In this document: in pieces, positions 1-60,929 of the stretch
How the letters are laid out: each line of letters opens with the position of its first letter
How positions within the stretch are numbered: position 1 is the first letter of the stretch
Assembly (NCBI GenBank): GCA_956465555.1
Contig: OY101115.1
Span: 248,001-312,000, forward strand
DNA length: 64,000 nt
Source of the DNA: Nitzschia sp. pyKryTriq1
Lineage: Eukaryota; Bacillariophyta; Bacillariophyceae; Bacillariales; Bacillariaceae
Direction: 5' to 3'
The notes under the pieces: generated by a model
The model's database searches: none
Seen by the model: only the letters and a program-made list of their open reading frames with translations
Told to the model about the DNA's origin: nothing
Translations under genes and position numbers: made by a program

Positions 1-2406
1 GAATGCATGACCCTGCTGGATTACCATCCTAGCGACGACGACGACGAGGGGATAAAGATGAAACTAAAGGCATGCCTTCAAATCATGCAAGTCAGTCTAA
101 CGGGAGAAAGCATTGACTTGAAGGACACCGGAATCAACGACGCCATCGAAGTGAGAAACAAAACCTCTGCTGGATATTTTTCGCGCAAACACGAATCTAG
201 CCAACCTCCGGAACTCTTTATGATACACAACCGTGGATTTGAGAAACCAAGAAAGAAATCGGGCGCAGCTGCTAGGCCTCCTAATGTCCGAAAGAGAGGC
301 GGGCAGAAAGACCCCGTTGCTGTGGAGCAGCTTGATTTGTGTACCGGAAAGGTTCTGGCATCTTACGCGAGTATGGCAGCTGCCAATGCCAGCTTGGGCC
401 GATATAGTCATGGCGGCATCAGCGACGTAGTCAGGGGGAGAACCAAGTCCACAGCGGGATATTTCTGGCGGCGAGCTGGCTCACAAGTCTTGCCAGATGG
501 GTTGGAGCGTGATGATGCGGACGATGGTGATGCTTCTTTATCGGCCACCGAAGAAAATAATGCCGACGACCACCTTGAAGAAGTCGAGACTTCTGCTGCA
601 GACGATGAAACAGCTGCTAGGCCTCCTAATGTCCGAAAGAGAGGCGGGCAGAAAGCCTCCGTTGCTGTGGAGCAGCTTGATTTGTCTACCGGAAAGGTTA
701 TGGCATCCTACGCGAGTATGGCAGCTGCCAACGCCAGCTTGGGCCGATATAGTCATGGCGGCATCAGCGACGTAGTCAGGGGGAGAACCAAGTCCACAGC
801 GGGATATTTCTGGCGGCGAGCTGGCTCACAAGTCTTGCCAGATGGGTTGGAGCGTGATGATGCGGACGGTGATGATGCTTCTTTATCGGCCACCGAAGAA
901 AATAATGCCGACGACCACCTTGAAGAAGTCGAGACTTCTGCTGCAGACGATGAAACAGCTGCTAGGCCTCCTATTGTCCGAAAGAGAGGCGGGCAGAAAG
1001 CCTCCGTTGCTGTGGAGCAGCTTGATTTGTGTACCGGAAAGGTTCTGGCATCTTACGCGAGTATGGCAGCTGCCAATGCCAGCTTGGGCCGATATAGTCA
1101 TGGCGGCATCAGCGACGTAGTCAGGGGGAGAACCAAGTCCACAGCGGGATATTTCTGGCGGCGAGCTGGCTCACAAGTCTTGCCAGATGGCTTGGAGCGT
1201 GATGATGCGGACGATGATGATGCTTCTTTATCGGCCACCGAAGAAAATAATGCCGACGACCACCTTGAAGAAGTCGAGACTTCTGCGGCAGACGATGAAA
1301 CAGCTGCTAGGCCTCCTAATGTCCGAAAGAGAGGCGGGCAGAAAGCCTCCGTTGCTGTGGAGCAGCTTGATTTGTGTACCGGAAAGGTTCTGGCATCTTA
1401 CGCGAGTATGGCAGCTGCCAACGCCAGCTTAGGCCGAAATAGTCATGGCAGCATCAGCGACGTAGTCAGGGGGAAAACCAAGTCCACAGCGGGATATTTC
1501 TGGCGGCGAGCTGGCTCACAAGTCTTGCCAGATGGCTTGGAGCGTGATGATGCGGACGGTGATGATGCGTCTCTAGCGGCCGCCAAAGAAAATAATGCCG
1601 ACGACCGGCAAGTAAACCCAAGAGTGCAACTTCCCCTCCAGCTATCGCAATCCTCCGCAGAGAAGTTGCCACAAGAGGTGAACGAGTTGCGGTACGTCTC
1701 TCCCAAGAGTAGCTCATCACGAAAGAGTGCAAGTGGACCTCCCGATCGATCTACCACGTCGGGAGAGTCAGCCGGAAAGGCAGTGGCATCTTGCACGAGC
1801 GTCTTGCCCGACAATGCTGCCGAGTTCCCATACGGCTTGCTTGAGGGCGACGATGATCATGATAATAAGAATACTGATAACAATGAAGCAGAAGTCAAAC
1901 CAGCGGCTGCAGCGGGACAAGTGCCAGTACTACACGCTGAGTCGCCATCCGATGATGAAGAATCATTGGAATCCGCCCCTGCTGCAAAAAAGTTGCCACA
2001 TACTACTAAGAGGGTGACACATCATGGTATGGTGGGCAATGATACGCCACCGTGGAAGACGCAAAAGAGGAAGGAAGCTACTACCACTCCAACGCCAAAA
2101 CCAAAGCCAAGGATGGCCGTGGCGGCCGCGGTCGGACAACATCCAAGAACCAGCCTGACGACGACTAACAACAACAACAACAACAACAACAACAAGAACG
2201 ACAAGAATACCGGTACGTCGTCGTCAGCAGGACGAACACGAAAACGAAAGCGAGACAAAAAGCTAAATGCTGAAGAGCTGGTGGATTTAATGGAGAGGCA
2301 ATATAAGCAATCATGGCGACTGTTCAAGAAGTTTCGACGCGCCGTCCGAAGGACTAGAGGAGTTGTTGTCGACGAGGGTCGACAGGCGGGTGAAGTAGTA
2401 CTGTAA
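1..2406 (+). CDS. NUMOD1/IENR1-like HTH repeat protein A (5' end outside window)
   Basis: The frame is open to the first base of the window; the first ATG is at 7, and from there 799 residues run to the stop. The N-terminal stretch (acidic run, then a KACLQIM-type segment) aligns with about residue 320 of the downstream paralog, so the true start probably lies upstream. Four nearly identical 115-residue units begin at about residues 104, 219, 334 and 449. Each holds a 55-60 residue module of the pattern VEQLDL-TGKV-ASYASM-AAN-SLG-GISDVV-GR-KSTAGYFWRR, followed by an acidic Ser/Asp linker. The module resembles NUMOD1/IENR1, the helix-turn-helix DNA-binding units of intron-encoded endonucleases. 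No GIY-YIG or HNH nuclease is visible. A degenerate half-module lies near residues 35-60. The tail has a poly-Asn run and a basic C-terminal segment (NAEELVDLMERQ, FRRAVRRTR) shared with the paralog. DNA or chromatin binding is inferred. Confidence 0.75.
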   Translation, partial: ECMTLLDYHPSDDDDEGIKMKLKACLQIMQVSLTGESIDLKDTGINDAIEVRNKTSAGYFSRKHESSQPPELFMIHNRGFEKPRKKSGAAARPPNVRKRGGQKDPVAVEQLDLCTGKVLASYASMAAANASLGRYSHGGISDVVRGRTKSTAGYFWRRAGSQVLPDGLERDDADDGDASLSATEENNADDHLEEVETSAADDETAARPPNVRKRGGQKASVAVEQLDLSTGKVMASYASMAAANASLGRYSHGGISDVVRGRTKSTAGYFWRRAGSQVLPDGLERDDADGDDASLSATEENNADDHLEEVETSAADDETAARPPIVRKRGGQKASVAVEQLDLCTGKVLASYASMAAANASLGRYSHGGISDVVRGRTKSTAGYFWRRAGSQVLPDGLERDDADDDDASLSATEENNADDHLEEVETSAADDETAARPPNVRKRGGQKASVAVEQLDLCTGKVLASYASMAAANASLGRNSHGSISDVVRGKTKSTAGYFWRRAGSQVLPDGLERDDADGDDASLAAAKENNADDRQVNPRVQLPLQLSQSSAEKLPQEVNELRYVSPKSSSSRKSASGPPDRSTTSGESAGKAVASCTSVLPDNAAEFPYGLLEGDDDHDNKNTDNNEAEVKPAAAAGQVPVLHAESPSDDEESLESAPAAKKLPHTTKRVTHHGMVGNDTPPWKTQKRKEATTTPTPKPKPRMAVAAAVGQHPRTSLTTTNNNNNNNNNKNDKNTGTSSSAGRTRKRKRDKKLNAEELVDLMERQYKQSWRLFKKFRRAVRRTRGVVVDEGRQAGEVVL
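271..1606 (+). repeat. Four near-identical 345-bp tandem coding repeats
   Basis: The start of the unit (CTGCTAGGCCTCCTA region) recurs at exactly 345-bp spacing: 271, 616, 961 and 1306. Copies 1-3 are full; copy 4 departs from the unit near 1606. Differences between copies are scattered single bases, so the array is young or kept uniform by gene conversion. 345 is divisible by three, so each unit adds 115 residues without changing frame. Confidence 0.93.
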
Positions 2407-2908
2407 TTTCTTCACCATGAACGCAGTACCCATAAGAGCAATACCTTTTAGCTAGTAATTGAGCCGTATTACGTATGAACCTGCAATAGTACTGTACCAG
2501 TAGTTGCTGCTTTCCAAAAGAGATCTTTTGGTTGTCTACTCTAGCTACTACTAGTAGCAGAAAGAGAGTGAGTGATGAGATATTGGACGACGACTCCTCG
2601 TTGCAAGTTTGAAGTTTGTTGTGGTCACATTGTTCGAATGTTGTTGACTTCATCGATCCCATCAGATTTTTGTCATGCTTTCGCGTCCAAAGTGCGTGAT
2701 TAGTACCATACCGCTGCATATGCGGTACTGAAAATACACCAGGTACGACGCACACGCACGCAAGCATCAGGCAATAACGCATAAGCATCACAAAAACCGC
2801 AATAAACGAAGAGCGAAGAGCATACCCTACTAGAATACAAAACGCTAACCCAGCAGCATAATAGCAGTGTTTCTTTTGTCTTTGACGCTGACAGTATAGC
2901 CAGCAGCC
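2407..2908. other. Intergenic spacer between the two tandem NUMOD-type genes
   Basis: 502 bp with no convincing gene. An open frame on the minus strand covers part of it but has no family resemblance. It must contain the end of the upstream transcript and the promoter of the downstream gene; no clear TATA-type element is visible. ACTAGTAG-type motifs occur near 2540-2556. Confidence 0.6.
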
Positions 2909-5900
2909 ATGGTGGAAACGGATGACAACAACTCGTCTTGTGCACTTAGCGTTACGCGATGTCATGATGATGCGAACGACGAGGCATCGTTCTTTTCGGC
3001 TCAACAGTCCGAAGAAGAATTCGCGCAAGAAGACGACGAGGACGAAGAAGAAGAAGAAGAAGAAGATTTCGACCTGAAACCAAGAGCAAGGCGAAGCATC
3101 AGCAGCAATAGTCGACTAAAGGACACACGCAACCACTTGGAAGAGGATGATGAGGCTGCTGCTGCTGATGATGATGATGATAATGACCAGTCGAGATCCG
3201 ACTCCGATGACTCGGATGACCACTCTGATGATCCTGATGACGACAGCAGCGACGATCATGGCCTCATCGAAGGCTCGCCGTACCAAGATGCTGAGAGCAG
3301 TGCCGAGGTGGGAGAACCTTTGTTTGAAGAGCTCCAAGCCTTGCTGACGCCTGCCCCACCCGACGAGTCAGCAGCTTCCTCCTCTCGTAGTCGAAGACGA
3401 AATAATGGCATGGAAAAGCCGACCCAGCAAGCAATCGAAAAGCTAGGATACGAGACGGCCCACGCCATGGTCAACGCCAGAGCCCAAATCGCTTGGTCGG
3501 GAATTGTGTACAGTCCCGAGTGGCTTGCCACTGGACACATTCGAGGAGGTGTGAAAATTGAGGGACTGACACCCTCCATCCTACTGCTTAGCTTGCTGGG
3601 CGATCGTTTCTTTTGTGCGGAGACACGTCTTCTCAATCAAATAGTCAAGGAACTGGGTGTCAAAGATATCGTCCGTGACTTCTTGGACGAGTGGGAATGG
3701 AACGAAGAATATCCAAAACTATCATCAGCAGCAGCATTATCGACGCAATCATGTCGTGCTGCTTCTAGTTTTTCCTACCCCGAATCGGTAAGGCTCGACT
3801 GCCGAAAATGCGAAATCTTTGTGGCTCGAACATTCGAGTGCATGGCACTTCTGGACAAACAACTTATGGATGATGGAGACGACGATGATATACTCGTCTC
3901 CAAGGTTCAGGCATATCTCCGAATCATGGAAGGCAATGTTATTATTCTGGACCGTGCAACAAGAAAAGTGGGTGGTGACACCCCATCCGTGCCTTATTGT
4001 AAATCAAGCCGCAGTGGAAGATCATCATCGGTCGTCAACGGGGATAACGATTATGATAGAAGAGATAGCCCAGCTTCGTTCTCTTCGGAGAATTCTTCTG
4101 TTGAGGAATTCGATGCCGAGACGGGGGAATCACCAGATGCAAAGGCTACAAGCATGGGTATTAGAGAGAGAAAAAGTCCTAGAACTCGGCGAACATCAGT
4201 TGAGCCCAGGAAAATGACTACCTACTCCTACGAAGAGCCTGTTGAGAAGTTGAATCCATACACAGGGGAGGTACTTGAACGATATCCCTCAATAACGGAG
4301 GCAAACTTGAGCTTGGGATTCAGCCCAAGTTATGACGGAATCCTCAAAGTTGTGAATGGCCATGGCCGGAGCTCTGGGCACTTCTTTTGGCGACCCATTG
4401 GTTCCAAAGCACTGCCGTTTAAAAGATTGCGCCCTCAATACCTCCCACCAGAAGAACTTATCAGGGCAAAAAAGAGAAGACGAACAAGACAGGATATCCC
4501 CATGGAACAAATAGATCTAGGAACCGGAAAAGTGATAGCCTCCTTTCCTTCCATCGATGAGGCAGCCTCAAGTGTTGGGATACGCCACAGGGCCATTCTC
4601 GACGTTCTGCGTGGAATCCATAAAGCTTCTGAGGGTTACTTTTGGCGGCGAGCTGGATCTAGCGCGCAACCCCGGCCTTCAGTGCGGAGTTTGACGCAAA
4701 CAATAGAAAAGCTTGATCCTGTTACGGGAAAAGTGCTCGCTTCGTTTCCGTCCGTCCCCGAAGCCGCTGCCAACGTGGGTGTACATAGACGTTGCATCGA
4801 CAAGGCTATATATGGTCAGCGAAAATCCGGCGGGGGCTATTCTTGGCGCAGAGTCAGTGCAACAACTCGACAACCACAGCCGCATAGACGACAGCTCCCA
4901 TCTCCCAAGGAAAATGCAAACGTGGCGGTGGAAATGATGGATTCTTCTTCTGCCAAAGTTTTGGCGACTTTTGCGTCCGTTGGCGAAGCCGCAGCCCACA
5001 TCGGGGCAAAAAACTCAAGTGCCATTTCCAACGTCTTACACGGTCGTCAAAAAACTTGCCGGGGCTACTTTTTTCGCAGAGTGGGATCAACCCAATTGCC
5101 GTATGGTGTAGAAGAAGCTACTTGGGACGAATCATCATCTTTATCGGCCACAGAAAGTGCGATGAAATCACCGGCAACACGGCGAATGAACCAAGCAGGA
5201 TGGCGTACTAAACCGGTTGAAAAGATTGACTTATCTTCTGGCAAAATTTTGGCGACTTTTGGTTCTGTCAGTGAAGCCGCTGCCCACGCCGGGGTAAAGA
5301 GCGCAGGTGGCATTTCCAACGTCTTGCACGGTCGTGAAAAATCGTGCGGGGGATACTTTTGGCGCATAGCCAATTCAACCCGATTGCCGCATGGTTTAAA
5401 AGCTCCTTCGGACGAATCATCTTCATCAGGCATGGAAAGTGCGATGGAACCACTGGCGACACGGCGGATAGAAAAGGTCGACAGAATGTCTGGTAAAGTG
5501 CTGGCGACTTTTGGTTCCGTGAATGAAGCCGCTGCCCACACCGGGGTAAAGAGCGCAGGTTGCATTTCCAAAGTTTTACGTGGTCGTCAGAAATCTAGCG
5601 GTGGCTTTCATTGGCGAAGGGTCGGATCAAAGCGATCAGCGCATGGACGACTGCGTATCCCTTCCTCGTTGAAAGTGCCGGTTGAAATGATTGATAAATC
5701 TTCTGGGAAAGTCTTGACGACTTTTTATTCCGTGGACGAGGGCGCTATCCATGTGGGGAAACCCCCATCTGCCATTTCGAACGTCTTACAAGGTCGTACA
5801 AAAACTTGCGGGGGCTACTTTTGGCGCAAAGTCGGATCAAGCCGATTGCCTCATGGTTTCGAAGCTTCTTTGGATGAATCTTCTTCATCAGAAGCCGAAA

Positions 5901-6358
5901 AGGAGATCGGACCGTCAAGAAAGCAAAAGAAGATGAAGCATGGAGATGGTTTCAGCAAGCCAGTAGAAATGATTGATCTATCATCTGGAAAAGTGTTGGC
6001 AACATTTGCTTCCATGACCCAAGCCGCTGCAAGTATCGACAGATCTGTTGGCATTTCCTACGTTTTACATGGCAAGCAAAAAAGTTGCGGGGGCTACTTT
6101 TGGCGTGAAGTTGGATCAAAGGCTTTACCACATCACTTACAAGGCGACTTGACCGATGACTCTCGATCAGAGGAATCAGTGGTTGGTCATGGATCGTCAA
6201 AACCAACAAAACGAAGACCGCTTGTCAATAAGGAAAATGCAGAAGAGTTGGCGCGTTTGCTAGAGAAGGAATGTAAGCAAACTTGGCGAACTTTCAAGAA
6301 ACTGCGACGCGCCGTCAGGCGATCTCGCGTAAAAAGTGTAGAGGGGCTACCCGCCTGA
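2909..6358 (+). CDS. NUMOD1/IENR1-like HTH repeat protein B
   Basis: 1149 residues in one exon; ATG at 2909 in a good context (CAGCCATGG). Residues 1-170 are acidic and low complexity (Glu and Asp runs). Residues about 170-350 form a globular region I do not recognise (HAMVNARAQIAW, LLSLLGDRFF, DCRKCEIF). From about residue 445 to 1080 there are eight diverged modules of about 58 residues, each with the core (V/I)E-(K/M)-D-SGKV-A(S/T)F-S(V/I)-EAA, G-ISNVL-GR-KS-GGYFWR, separated by short linkers. This is the NUMOD1/IENR1-like helix-turn-helix pattern; no nuclease domain is present. The basic C-terminal segment (NAEELARLLEKE, LRRAVRRSR) matches that of the upstream paralog, so the two are tandem duplicates. 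Unlike the paralog, the modules here are old and well diverged. A multi-site DNA-binding protein is likely but unproven. Confidence 0.82.
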   Translation: MVETDDNNSSCALSVTRCHDDANDEASFFSAQQSEEEFAQEDDEDEEEEEEEDFDLKPRARRSISSNSRLKDTRNHLEEDDEAAAADDDDDNDQSRSDSDDSDDHSDDPDDDSSDDHGLIEGSPYQDAESSAEVGEPLFEELQALLTPAPPDESAASSSRSRRRNNGMEKPTQQAIEKLGYETAHAMVNARAQIAWSGIVYSPEWLATGHIRGGVKIEGLTPSILLLSLLGDRFFCAETRLLNQIVKELGVKDIVRDFLDEWEWNEEYPKLSSAAALSTQSCRAASSFSYPESVRLDCRKCEIFVARTFECMALLDKQLMDDGDDDDILVSKVQAYLRIMEGNVIILDRATRKVGGDTPSVPYCKSSRSGRSSSVVNGDNDYDRRDSPASFSSENSSVEEFDAETGESPDAKATSMGIRERKSPRTRRTSVEPRKMTTYSYEEPVEKLNPYTGEVLERYPSITEANLSLGFSPSYDGILKVVNGHGRSSGHFFWRPIGSKALPFKRLRPQYLPPEELIRAKKRRRTRQDIPMEQIDLGTGKVIASFPSIDEAASSVGIRHRAILDVLRGIHKASEGYFWRRAGSSAQPRPSVRSLTQTIEKLDPVTGKVLASFPSVPEAAANVGVHRRCIDKAIYGQRKSGGGYSWRRVSATTRQPQPHRRQLPSPKENANVAVEMMDSSSAKVLATFASVGEAAAHIGAKNSSAISNVLHGRQKTCRGYFFRRVGSTQLPYGVEEATWDESSSLSATESAMKSPATRRMNQAGWRTKPVEKIDLSSGKILATFGSVSEAAAHAGVKSAGGISNVLHGREKSCGGYFWRIANSTRLPHGLKAPSDESSSSGMESAMEPLATRRIEKVDRMSGKVLATFGSVNEAAAHTGVKSAGCISKVLRGRQKSSGGFHWRRVGSKRSAHGRLRIPSSLKVPVEMIDKSSGKVLTTFYSVDEGAIHVGKPPSAISNVLQGRTKTCGGYFWRKVGSSRLPHGFEASLDESSSSEAEKEIGPSRKQKKMKHGDGFSKPVEMIDLSSGKVLATFASMTQAAASIDRSVGISYVLHGKQKSCGGYFWREVGSKALPHHLQGDLTDDSRSEESVVGHGSSKPTKRRPLVNKENAEELARLLEKECKQTWRTFKKLRRAVRRSRVKSVEGLPA

Positions 6359-27835: not shown

Positions 27836-29494
27836 ATGATGCACACTACCTTCGATTACATCAAGATGGCCTACTCCATGTTCTTGGTCATCTTTTCGAT
27901 CGTCATCGTCACCGCGTTGATGTTCGATAAAAACACCAAGATGTCCGCCGACGTCAGCCCCGCCGTCGCCCTCATCGTCATGTGGGTCGGTATTACCTGG
28001 ATGTCCATGGTTGAGGGAGGACAGTGCTCCATGGTTGGTCTTCCCCCCGTCAACCGCGAGCTCTACAAGGAATCTCACCCCATCACGTACAAGATCTGCT
28101 CTCTCGGACACAAGGGAGACAACTTGGACCGATACCTCATGGGACGTCAGTTCATGGTCATCTTCATCAACTTCACCATCAGTTTGTGCGGAGCTCCTCT
28201 TGCGGGTGCCGAGGCTCTCGGTCTTCCCGACTGGATCCAAAGCATCTTCCTCGGATCTGGTATCGCCATGGTCTTGACGGTTGTCACTGTTGGACAGCTC
28301 ACCGCCCAAGTCAACGCCTCGCACTGCATGCTTGACTACATCAACACCCACTTCATGACCTTTACACTCTATGTGACCTTGGTCATCGAGGTGACCGGTG
28401 TCATGCACACGTGCTACCTGATCCAATACTTCTTCTACTGGCTCGCCGGAAAGCCCGTCGTCACCCACGAAGCACCCCGCACCGAAGCCCAAGCCATCTT
28501 CTTCTACGGACGTTGCGTGTGGTCGCTCGCCATCCTTGGCTTTTCTTTGGCCGTCACTCTTGACGCTCTCTTCAAAGGAGAGACCACCATGTGGGCTGGT
28601 GTCCCCAACGGTGTCGCCGTCGTCCTCTTCTTCTTGCTTATGTCCGTCGTCGGTTTGTTGGAGGGTATGCAAATTGCCTTCTTCGCAGTCTCCAAGCTTC
28701 AAATGAAGGACCGTGGAAGTCACCCCATGGCCATGAAGACCTGTGAGCTTTTGTTCCGTGGTGAGGGACGCAACCTTCCCGGATTCATGGTCGGTCGTCA
28801 AATGTGCGTCACCCTCTGCTTCTTCGTCATTGCCCGTGTCACCACTTTGAATGTCGAGATCGGAGTCGACGAAAACATCTTTGGTGTCTCGGACAGCATC
28901 CAAAAGTTCTTCAACATGGGATTCCTCGGAGCCATCATCACCACCATCCTCGGATCCATCTCGTGGCAATTGGTCGCCTCGGCCTTCCCCCTGGAGTTCT
29001 TGTCGAACCCCTTGGTCTATGTCTTCCTCCGTCTCTGTCTTCTTTTGGAGGCCACCGGTATCTGCGCCGGAGCCTGGTTCTTGGGTATCATCCACAAGAA
29101 GGTTGCTGGATTCCAACTCGATGAAGTTTACATTGGAACTCCTGAAGAACGTGCCGCCATGAACAAGGCTGACATGTCGTCTGCCGCTGGAGACGATGTT
29201 GCCGAACCCCATTTGGGAACCAACATCCTCAACTACGCTCCTGGAGCCAAGCACATCCCCGCCGAATGGCAGAGCCAGAAGTTCCATTTTGTCAAGTCCT
29301 TCACTGAACGTCGTTCGGACATTCTTGCCAACATTAAGGATATTCGCGATCAAATCGAGCAGAGCGCTACCAAGGAAGAGAAGGAGGCCTTTGAATCCTC
29401 TCTTGCCTTGGAGACCAAGGCATTGAAGGAATTGAACGAGGAGCAACAAGTTACCGAAAGCAATGACGACCTCGTCATGGTCGAAGAGCCTTAA
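27836..29494 (+). CDS. SIT: Silicon transporter SIT, copy A
   Basis: 552 residues, one exon. About ten membrane helices. The two family signature pairs are intact: EGGQ (60-63) with GRQ (103-105), and EGMQ (276-279) with GRQ (320-322), arranged as two five-helix repeats. The C-terminal cytosolic part (about 455-552) holds a charged coiled coil. Length is typical of diatom SITs (about 545-550). The protein takes up silicic acid, with sodium in marine species, at the plasma membrane. Third codon positions are strongly C-biased, unlike neighbouring genes, which suits very high expression. Copy B lies inverted 30 kb away; the two agree almost fully up to about residue 245 and diverge in the loop after EGMQ, in helix 9-10 and in the coiled coil. 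Confidence 0.97.
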   Translation: MMHTTFDYIKMAYSMFLVIFSIVIVTALMFDKNTKMSADVSPAVALIVMWVGITWMSMVEGGQCSMVGLPPVNRELYKESHPITYKICSLGHKGDNLDRYLMGRQFMVIFINFTISLCGAPLAGAEALGLPDWIQSIFLGSGIAMVLTVVTVGQLTAQVNASHCMLDYINTHFMTFTLYVTLVIEVTGVMHTCYLIQYFFYWLAGKPVVTHEAPRTEAQAIFFYGRCVWSLAILGFSLAVTLDALFKGETTMWAGVPNGVAVVLFFLLMSVVGLLEGMQIAFFAVSKLQMKDRGSHPMAMKTCELLFRGEGRNLPGFMVGRQMCVTLCFFVIARVTTLNVEIGVDENIFGVSDSIQKFFNMGFLGAIITTILGSISWQLVASAFPLEFLSNPLVYVFLRLCLLLEATGICAGAWFLGIIHKKVAGFQLDEVYIGTPEERAAMNKADMSSAAGDDVAEPHLGTNILNYAPGAKHIPAEWQSQKFHFVKSFTERRSDILANIKDIRDQIEQSATKEEKEAFESSLALETKALKELNEEQQVTESNDDLVMVEEP

Positions 29495-59258: not shown

Positions 59259-60929
59259 TTATGCCATGTCGACATCCGATGACGATTCAGTCTTTTGTCC
59301 ATCCTCTTCGCGAGCTTGTTGTTCGTTCAGGTCTCGGAGGGCACGGACCTCGGATTCGATGCCCTTAGCAAACACCTCACGCTGTTCCTTGTCCGTTGCG
59401 CGCTCGACTTGGGAGCGAAGAAATTTGATGTTCTCTAGAATTCCGGCGCGGAGCTCCGAGAAAGTTTTTCCATTCGCGTTAAAGTTGGTGCTGTTCCATT
59501 CAGCGGGGATGTGGTTGGCTCCAGGAGCGTAGTTGAGGATGTTGGTTCCCAAATGGGGTTCGGCAACTTCGTCACCCTTCTCGGACGACAAGTCGGCCTT
59601 GTCCATGGCGGCACGCTCTTCAGGAGTGCCAATGTAGACTTCATCGAGTTGGAATCCAGCAACCTTCTTGTGGATGATACCCAAGAACCAGGCTCCGGCG
59701 CAGATACCGGTGGCTTCCAACCACAAGCACAACTTGAGGAAGACAAAGACCAAGGGGTTCGACAAGAACTCCAAGGGAAAGGCCGAGGCGACCAGTTGCC
59801 ACGAGATGGATCCGAGGATGGTGGTGATGATGGCTCCGAGGAATCCCATGTTGAAGAACTTTTGGATGCTGTCCGAGACGCCAAAGATGTTTTCGTCGAC
59901 TCCGATCTCGACATTCAAAGTGGTGACACGGGCAATGACGAAGAAGCAGAGGGTGACGCACATTTGACGACCGACCATGAATCCGGGAAGGTTGCGTCCC
60001 TCACCGCGGAACAAGAGCTCGCAGGTCCTCATGGCCATGGGGTGCCCACCACGCTCCTTCTTTTGAAGCTTGGAGACGGCGAAGAAGGCAATTTGCATAC
60101 CCTCCAACAAACCGACGACGGACATGAGCAAGAAGAAGAGGACGACGGCGACACCGTTGGGGACACCAGCCCACATGGTGGTCTGTCCTTTGAAGAGAGC
60201 GTCAAGAGTGACGGCCAAAGAAAAGCCAAGGATGGCGAGAGACCACACGCAACGTCCGTAGAAGAAGATGGCTTGGGCTTCGGTGCGGGGTGCTTCGTGG
60301 GTGACGACGGGCTTTCCGGCGAGCCAGTAGAAGAAGTATTGGATCAAGTAGCACGTGTGCATGACACCGGTCACCTCGATGACCAAGGTCACATAGAGTG
60401 TAAAGGTCATGAAGTGGGTGTTGATGTAGTCAAGCATGCAGTGCGAGGCGTTGACTTGGGCGGTGAGCTGTCCAACAGTGACAACCGTCAAGACCATGGC
60501 GATACCAGATCCGAGGAAGATGCTTTGGATCCAGTCGGGAAGACCGAGAGCCTCGGCACCCGCAAGAGGAGCTCCGCACATACTGATGGTGAAGTTGATG
60601 AAGATGACCATGAACTGACGTCCCATGAGGTATCGGTCCAAGTTGTCTCCCTTGTGTCCGAGAGAGCAGATCTTGTACGTGATGGGGTGAGATTCCTTGT
60701 AAAGCTCGCGGTTGACGGGGGGAAGACCAACCATGGAGCACTGTCCTCCCTCAACCATGGACATCCAGGTAATACCGACCCACATGACGATGAGGGCGAC
60801 GGCGGGGCTGACGTCGGCGGACATCTTGGTGTTTTTATCGAACATCAACGCGGTGACGATGACGATCGAAAAGATGACCAAGAACATGGAGTAGGCCATC
60901 TTAATGTAATCGAAGGTAGTGTGCATCAT
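59259..60929 (-). CDS. SIT: Silicon transporter SIT, copy B
   Basis: 556 residues, one exon. The same ten-helix plan as copy A, with EGGQ/GRQ and EGMQ/GRQ at identical positions. Differences from A cluster: Leu117Met, Glu249Gln, the loop after EGMQ (KKERGGH for MKDRGSH), helix 9-10 (FVFLKLCLWL for YVFLRLCLLL), and the entire C-terminal coiled coil (about 480-556), which ends in DVDMA instead of VMVEEP. N-terminal 240 residues and the 88-bp 5' flank are almost the same, which points to a recent duplication or gene conversion. Codon use is again strongly C-ending. Silicic acid uptake at the plasma membrane or vesicles; the changed C terminus may alter trafficking or regulation (inference). Confidence 0.97.
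   Translation of the reverse strand: MMHTTFDYIKMAYSMFLVIFSIVIVTALMFDKNTKMSADVSPAVALIVMWVGITWMSMVEGGQCSMVGLPPVNRELYKESHPITYKICSLGHKGDNLDRYLMGRQFMVIFINFTISMCGAPLAGAEALGLPDWIQSIFLGSGIAMVLTVVTVGQLTAQVNASHCMLDYINTHFMTFTLYVTLVIEVTGVMHTCYLIQYFFYWLAGKPVVTHEAPRTEAQAIFFYGRCVWSLAILGFSLAVTLDALFKGQTTMWAGVPNGVAVVLFFLLMSVVGLLEGMQIAFFAVSKLQKKERGGHPMAMRTCELLFRGEGRNLPGFMVGRQMCVTLCFFVIARVTTLNVEIGVDENIFGVSDSIQKFFNMGFLGAIITTILGSISWQLVASAFPLEFLSNPLVFVFLKLCLWLEATGICAGAWFLGIIHKKVAGFQLDEVYIGTPEERAAMDKADLSSEKGDEVAEPHLGTNILNYAPGANHIPAEWNSTNFNANGKTFSELRAGILENIKFLRSQVERATDKEQREVFAKGIESEVRALRDLNEQQAREEDGQKTESSSDVDMA

What the first reader, a model, noticed from the sequence alone, without database searches (positions are those of the whole stretch)
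1..6358. Tandem pair of nuclease-free NUMOD1/IENR1-like repeat proteins
Two adjacent genes encode proteins with four and eight copies of a helix-turn-helix module that resembles the DNA-binding part of intron-encoded endonucleases, joined to a shared basic C-terminal segment. Seen: repeat pattern with TGKV, S-EAA, ISNVL-GR-K and GGYFWR positions. Known: NUMOD1/IENR1 modules usually occur once or twice beside a GIY-YIG or HNH nuclease. Inferred: the module has been taken over by the host as a multi-site DNA-binding scaffold, which I do not know to be described in diatoms.
Basis: partly seen in the sequence, partly recalled or inferred. Interest (0 to 1): 0.72.

Follow-up and report, generated by a model that had tools for sequence, protein, structure and literature searches.

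The report
Diatom arrays of homing-endonuclease DNA-binding modules
A diatom nucleus carries a family of genes that string together many copies of the DNA-gripping piece of phage homing endonucleases, without the DNA-cutting part, which suggests that the piece was taken over by the host to make multi-site DNA-binding proteins.

Summary
Window 1-6358 carries two adjacent genes with four full plus one half, and eight, copies of a 54-residue module that Pfam assigns to the I-HmuI/NUMOD-like DNA-binding domain (E 4.8e-11 and 3.6e-47). The predicted module (beta-beta-HTH-beta, pLDDT 87) best matches the DNA-binding domain of homing endonuclease I-HmuI and a nuclease-free DNA-binding protein of Paulinella. 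Gene 1 starts about 1.5 kb before the window with two more modules. The genome, very probably a diatom's (8 silicon transporters), has at least 11 module genes: 5 by Pfam, 6 more by my own profile. No nuclease was found in them or linked to them. Eight of 11 show a previously unlabelled N-terminal domain; 5 share a basic C-terminal helix. Two carry an apparent intron inside a module. Arrays change by tandem duplication and gene conversion. The HTH changes faster (pN/pS 0.72) than the strands (0.26). Best reading: domesticated multi-site DNA-binding proteins; binding, targets and role are untested. AP2 domains and Paulinella proteins are precedents; the long arrays appear new.

The parts
1..2406 (+). 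Gene 1 (3' part; 5' part lies upstream of the window at G000:C1:246429-248000): N-domain tail, half module, 4 modules, low-complexity linker, C-terminal basic helix
   Evidence: PF22083 E 4.8e-11
1..105 (+). End of the shared N-terminal domain of gene 1
   Evidence: alignment A2
103..201 (+). Half (C-terminal part) of a module, degenerate
   Evidence: 25.9 bits, HMM positions 22-54
271..1650 (+). Four tandem 345-bp units (115 codons each); first three 97.7-98.3% identical in DNA, fourth 85.8-86.4% over the whole unit (95% over its first 306 bp)
322..486 (+). Module G1-3
   Evidence: 85.5 bits
667..831 (+). Module G1-4
   Evidence: 84.0 bits
1012..1176 (+). Module G1-5
   Evidence: 85.5 bits
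1357..1521 (+). Module G1-6
   Evidence: 85.1 bits
2236..2403 (+). Shared basic C-terminal segment, gene 1
   Evidence: 50% identical to gene 2 segment
2909..6358 (+). Gene 2, complete ORF, 1149 aa: acidic tail, N-domain, 8 modules, basic C-terminal helix
   Evidence: PF22083 E 3.6e-47
3260..3952 (+). Shared N-terminal domain (gene 2 aa 118-348), no Pfam match in this member and no PDB sequence match; dN/dS well below 1
3275..3549 (+). 276-column tract 97.5% identical to paralogue C (C1:165.5k) inside otherwise diverged genes: apparent gene conversion
4241..4408 (+). Module G2-1
   Evidence: 63.5 bits
4505..4663 (+). Module G2-2 (also holds the NUMOD1 PF07453 stretch)
   Evidence: 75.7 bits
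4703..4861 (+). Module G2-3
   Evidence: 72.8 bits
4928..5092 (+). Module G2-4
   Evidence: 76.2 bits
5216..5377 (+). Module G2-5 (in the first row of A1, structure predicted)
   Evidence: 80.7 bits; model
5468..5632 (+). Module G2-6
   Evidence: 78.3 bits
5681..5842 (+). Module G2-7
   Evidence: 78.0 bits
5963..6121 (+). Module G2-8
   Evidence: 78.3 bits
6185..6355 (+). Shared basic C-terminal segment, gene 2

Best explanation
These are diatom nuclear genes built from the DNA-binding module of phage-type HNH/GIY-YIG homing endonucleases, taken into the host without the nuclease and multiplied into arrays. Each module would be a small beta-beta-HTH-beta domain docking one short stretch of duplex DNA. 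Linkers join 1 to about 11 modules, so one protein can touch several sites or a long composite site. The shared N-terminal domain and the C-terminal basic helix, which also appear in module-free paralogues, would supply the host function (partner binding or self-association). Shown: module homology, no nuclease found in or beside the genes, shared architecture, tandem duplication, gene-conversion tract, selection pattern. Predicted by eye: introns inside modules of two paralogues. Inferred: DNA binding, nuclear site of action, role as a transcription or chromatin regulator.
Against: No DNA-binding, localisation or expression data. Foldseek E-values of the best matches are only 0.079 and 0.16. 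With the window modules alone (A1), the PDB profile search put a photosystem II protein first (E 0.12), I-HmuI second (E 0.98) and did not list 8b6e; phmmer of whole gene 2 found no relevant chain. Modules are not strongly basic: net charge -2 to +8. Six of the 11 module genes rest on my HMM and tblastn, not on Pfam. The N-domain could not be folded (single sequence, pLDDT 39), so its role is open. pN/pS of the HTH does not exceed 1, so diversifying selection is not shown.
Confidence: 0.7

Rival explanations
1. Organelle nucleoid proteins: the arrays work like the Paulinella sCTPs, imported into plastid or mitochondrion to bind organelle DNA.
For: The closest solved nuclease-free relative is a chromatophore-imported protein. 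This genome also has a NUMOD3-repeat protein with a signal-peptide-like N-terminus at C10:772k (targeting judged by eye).
Against: Six family N-termini looked at (G1, G2, B, C, D, H; start codons chosen by me) are hydrophilic, five of them with negative net charge, with no hydrophobic signal stretch.
Confidence: 0.1
2. Protein- or RNA-binding scaffold: the HTH modules lost DNA binding and serve as a repeat scaffold.
For: Modest net charge of modules (-2 to +8) and long acidic linkers in G1 and C; HTH residues tolerate change.
Against: The core positions stay conserved in 32 non-redundant modules; strand pN/pS 0.26.
Confidence: 0.1
3. Remnants of a mobile element (decayed homing endonuclease or viral insert) without host function.
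For: Module origin in mobile elements; half and truncated modules in G1 and C.
Against: Open frames of 1149 and 1325 codons for the window genes, dN/dS well below 1 in the N-domain, apparent introns, ordinary host neighbours such as RRM, CHY and RING zinc finger, FGGY kinase and silicon transporter genes.
Confidence: 0.05
4. The N-terminal domain is an unrecognised nuclease, so the proteins are still site-directed endonucleases.
For: The N-domain has no convincing Pfam match and no PDB sequence match and its fold is unknown; it lies N-terminal of the modules, as the nuclease does in the viral relatives.
Against: Of its 30 invariant positions in seven sequences only two are acidic (both E) and none is histidine; module-free paralogues keep the domain.
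Confidence: 0.05

Closest known systems
I-HmuI-type HNH homing endonucleases (PDB 1u3e; Pfam PF22083) and GIY-YIG enzymes with NUMOD1/PF22083 modules
   Same: Same module fold and motif; nearest sequence relatives found in viral contigs L045-L048. The C-terminal region of lactococcal I-HmuI-like enzymes is variable and presumed to set DNA specificity (PMC12724721 passages)
   Different: No nuclease found; up to about 11 modules in one protein instead of 1-2; host nuclear genes with another N-domain
DNA-binding short chromatophore-targeted proteins of Paulinella (sCTP-23166, PDB 8b6e)
   Same: Nuclease-free eukaryote-encoded version of the same fold; multigene family; dsDNA binding reported (PMC12176269 passages)
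   Different: Under 90 aa and imported into an organelle; here long arrays with N-domain and C-helix, no import signal seen
AP2/ERF transcription factors
   Same: Eukaryotic DNA-binding family suggested to descend from HNH endonucleases (PMC7714060 passages)
   Different: A different domain (three beta strands and one helix); one or two copies per protein in the plant subfamilies named there
Phage 'HTH DNA binding protein' phrog_3855
   Same: Matches the modules (E 8e-32 for gene 2) and is labelled as DNA-binding, not as nuclease
   Different: 115-position phage profile; I saw the label only and did not examine its members
Plant NUMOD3 gene ClNUM1 (Chrysanthemum)
   Same: A eukaryotic gene with a NUMOD-class domain (PMC11201747 passages)
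   Different: NUMOD3, another motif; no array of this module
KRAB zinc-finger and TALE arrays (recalled, no call)
   Same: Strings of like DNA-binding modules that change in number and in face residues
   Different: Unrelated folds; no one-module-one-motif code is shown here

Membership tests
PF22083 / NUMOD1-type DNA-binding module | Profile score over the curated cut-off | tested here: met
   PF22083 42.5 and 158.2 bits (cut-off 27); NUMOD1 32.9 bits in gene 2 (cut-off 22.8)
PF22083 / NUMOD1-type DNA-binding module | Beta-hairpin plus HTH fold as in the I-HmuI C-terminal domain | tested here: met
PF22083 / NUMOD1-type DNA-binding module | Binds duplex DNA | not testable with these tools
   Needs EMSA/SELEX
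HNH or GIY-YIG homing endonuclease | Nuclease domain in the same protein | tested here: not met
   No nuclease family in the two window proteins nor in the scanned ORFs of the other nine module genes; gene E has a run of N inside, untested there; an unknown nuclease in the N-domain is not excluded
HNH or GIY-YIG homing endonuclease | Nuclease gene close by | tested here: not met
   NUMOD4 none; HNH_3 none over cut-off, with one sub-threshold hit (17.7 bits, E 0.136, 16 of 46 positions) 16-18 kb from gene F on C12; 9 GIY-YIG matches, the nearest 64 kb from a family locus (C6:1904461 vs C6:1968786)
Paulinella DNA-binding sCTP | Same module fold without nuclease | tested here: met
Paulinella DNA-binding sCTP | Short (<90 aa) and organelle-imported | tested here: not met
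   1149 and 1325 codons; hydrophilic N-termini; definition from PMC12176269 passages. Import itself was not tested
Programmable DNA-recognition array (ZNF/TALE-like in function) | Positive selection on DNA-facing residues | tested here: inconclusive
   HTH pN/pS 0.72 (0.54-0.94) versus strands 0.26 (0.15-0.36), 11 independent pairs; higher than scaffold but not above 1
Programmable DNA-recognition array (ZNF/TALE-like in function) | Different modules bind different short DNA motifs | not testable with these tools
   Needs binding data

The most novel reading that the evidence does not exclude
Diatoms evolved their own expandable DNA-recognition array, comparable in logic to zinc-finger or TALE arrays but built from the homing-endonuclease HTH module. 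Module number changes by tandem duplication, segments are exchanged between paralogues by gene conversion, and each module's HTH face sets a short target. The arrays would thus read long composite sites (for instance of transposons, repeats or clustered promoters), with the N-domain as effector.
Probability: 0.25. Interest if true: 0.88.

Novelty: new variant of a known kind. Interest (0 to 1): 0.64.

Why it matters
It would be a further case, beside AP2 and the Paulinella sCTPs, of a homing-endonuclease DNA-binding domain becoming a eukaryotic DNA-binding family, and the first long-array form that I know of. It gives about a dozen testable candidate regulators in a diatom, a conserved N-terminal domain without a name, and a possible new modular DNA-binding scaffold for engineering. 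The Paulinella parallel suggests that protists can take over this module readily.

Tried and rejected
AF2 of the N-domain alone gave pLDDT 39, so I drew no fold from it and ran no fold search with it. Pfam and PDB profile searches of the N-domain gave nothing usable (SRF-TF in 1 of 7 members at E 0.02, taken as chance; none). The viral scan with the N-domain found no relative. Both genome-contig scans for the module found no confirmed relative; the back-translated patterns were narrow, so this is no evidence of absence in bacteria. A viral scan with a stretch of paralogue C found none. tblastn of the gene 2 array against phages found nothing at 1e-5 and E 2e-3 or weaker in the 40 of 219 records listed at limit 10; single-module queries did better. 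The plasmid search found 1 record. A weak hit at C9:2133900 had no module by the HMM. The first idea that the recognition helix alone evolves fast was weakened: with classes set by the AF2 secondary structure, helix 1, turn, helix 2 and the loops lie at 0.53-0.89 and only the strands are slow (0.27); my earlier position classes were picked after seeing variability and are not used as evidence. The module tree has few columns; one origin of the diatom modules has support 88/87 against only 7 viral modules, so it is suggestive. Script errors; frame error of mine: repeated. The PNAS paper on sCTPs is not held; I rely on passages of a review and on PDB titles. Paper searches of little use.
Full report
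What is there. Window 1-6358 holds two genes on the + strand. Gene 2 (2909-6358) is a complete ORF of 1149 codons; gene 1 (1-2406) is cut by the window edge. The window is G000:C1:248001-312000 of a 40.65-Mb genome in 20 contigs. The gene 1 frame runs C1:246429-250403, 1325 codons. A 54-position module HMM built from these paralogues finds 8 full modules in gene 2 and 6 full plus one half in gene 1; 4 full plus the half lie in the window. The best domain score in 400 residue-shuffled copies of the two proteins was 5.7 bits, against 63.5-85.5 for the full modules.

Where the module comes from. Scans of viral contigs with two module alignments gave four distinct contigs. In all four a module ends a frame of 207-344 codons with one or two modules. 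L047 and L048 have GIY-YIG over cut-off; L045 has NUMOD4 over cut-off, HNH_3 under cut-off, and a PHROGs HNH endonuclease match at E 9.1e-47; L046 has only a sub-threshold NUMOD1 hit and looks GIY-YIG-like by eye. One such module finds 265 phage records; of the 60 listed, 57 carry a feature named endonuclease, 1 a NUMOD4 motif protein, 2 neither; many are near-identical Lactococcus phages. The 37 full modules of six diatom genes form one side of a branch against 7 viral modules with support 88/87, compatible with one takeover, though columns are few.

The family in this genome. Module-bearing genes: gene 1 (G1), gene 2 (G2), B (C1:150-154k, 8 modules, one split by an apparent intron), C (C1:165-169k, 10 plus one truncated), D (C6:1.97 Mb, 4), E (C12:40k, at least one split module, interior reads N), F (C12:1.42 Mb, 2), and divergent ones at C17:327k (3, one only partly matched), C17:151k (at least 2), C15:602k (1) and C5:396k (2): 11 in all. 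Pfam sees PF22083 over cut-off in 5 of the 11 (G1, G2, B, C, D); the other six rest on my HMM and on tblastn between paralogues. The genome search scores only its best candidates, so the count is a lower bound. A shared N-terminal domain (SPY...AEVGE.LFE...LL, ending with C.KC.IFVAR...KV.ACL.IME) is in G1, G2, B, C and twice in D. Its start is visible in E. By profile comparison its second half is in F and C17:327k (E 2.6e-6 and 2.8e-7; one control protein 0.65). I did not detect it in the other three. Five module-free loci also carry this domain or part of it: a near-identical pair at C3:3.05 Mb and C1:4.19 Mb, another pair about 70 kb from these, and a weaker one at C1:3.23 Mb. The basic C-terminal helix is shared by G1, G2, B, C and E (46-52% identical to G2) and, more weakly, by two module-free genes (25% and 23%). 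The simplest history is that modules were inserted and multiplied between two older host parts; the direction is inference. The C5 gene joins two modules to DUF6824 (E 1.4e-10).

No nuclease found. HNH_3 has no match over cut-off; its one sub-threshold hit (17.7 bits, 16 of 46 positions) is 16-18 kb from gene F, which I take as chance. NUMOD4 has none. GIY-YIG has 9 matches, none at a family locus. The genome is very probably a diatom's: 8 silicon transporter genes, two inside the window.

Host gene, not relic. Neighbours are ordinary host genes (RRM, CHY and RING zinc fingers, methyltransferase, FGGY kinase). In B and E a GT...AG stretch interrupts a module after the first base of the same codon, and reading across it gives a normal module (by eye; no transcript data). 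N-domain dN/dS is 0.28 (G1-G2), 0.27 (G2-B), 0.35 (G2-C), 0.38 (B-C), 0.23 (G1-B) and 0.27 (G1-C); the pairs with D, its second copy, and H have dS above 2 or saturated and were not used.

How arrays change. In gene 1 four units of 345 bp stand in tandem, the first three 97.7-98.3% identical. In C a two-module unit of about 543 bp is repeated. A 276-column tract of 97.5% identity is the only DNA match of 60 bp or more between G2 and C, which points to gene conversion; a 252-column tract of 93% joins B and C, whose next best long match is 84%. Among 11 independent recent module pairs, the HTH part (positions 18-37) has pN/pS 0.72 (bootstrap 0.54-0.94) and the strands 0.26 (0.15-0.36); in none of 500 bootstraps was the HTH as low. 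This shows looser constraint on the HTH, not positive selection. Module net charge is -2 to +8; linkers in C alternate short basic (13-14 aa, +2 to +4) and long acidic (53-57 aa, -10 to -14), with a last one of 20 aa.

Mechanism. Most likely each module grips a short duplex site by its HTH, and arrays add up to multi-site binding, with the N-domain and C-helix giving the host function. That such a module can bind DNA without a nuclease is backed by the Paulinella sCTPs, a family of over 200 reported to bind dsDNA (PMC12176269, passages). PMC7729196 (passages) describes a Paulinella motif shared with bacterial proteins that carry GIY-YIG or intron endonuclease domains; that this is the same family as 8b6e is my inference. 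DNA binding by the diatom proteins is untested.

Novelty. PMC searches: NUMOD1 with diatom, 0 papers; NUMOD, IENR1, PF22083 and related terms, 35 papers, none on diatoms by title; accession terms, 8, none on diatoms by title; diatom with homing-endonuclease and repeat terms, 2, neither on this; a mixed search, 5, of which one (PMC12220804) names diatoms in passing. That paper reports a Symbiodinium polinton-like virus with HNH_3 between NUMOD4 and AP2 (passage), a possible kind of carrier into protists. The library omits most subscription papers, so 'not described' is only as good as that. The kind (a homing-endonuclease DNA-binding domain taken over by a eukaryote) is known from AP2 (PMC7714060 passages) and Paulinella; the array form with this N-domain is new to me.

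Noticed in passing
G000 whole genome; example L054:1856-4351: DUF6824 (PF20710) is hugely expanded: 150 of 150 scored candidates (237 in the first look) match at E<=0.001, and 0 held papers mention it. One gene with this domain also has two of the HTH modules.
   Followed up: partly
window 27839-29467 (+) and 59304-60926 (-): Silicon transporter cluster: two genes in the window and two more just beyond it at C1:312395 and C1:315679.
   Followed up: no
G000:C1:4.12-4.19 Mb and C3:2.98-3.05 Mb (L038, L039, L041, L042): Near-identical segments on two contigs, seen at two markers about 70 kb apart; gene H pair has dS 0.007 and dN 0 in the N-domain. Recent large duplication or assembly effect.
   Followed up: no
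L057:1627-3438 (G000:C10:772k): A 603-aa protein with NUMOD3 repeats, no nuclease match, and a signal-peptide-like N-terminus by eye, perhaps plastid-targeted.
   Followed up: partly
L035:3660-7628 (C6:1.97 Mb): One ORF with two N-domains, one on each side of a four-module array, as if a module-bearing and a module-free gene had fused.
   Followed up: no
L036:4001-6500: A 2500-base run of N inside module gene E, at round coordinates; gap or withheld stretch.
   Followed up: no
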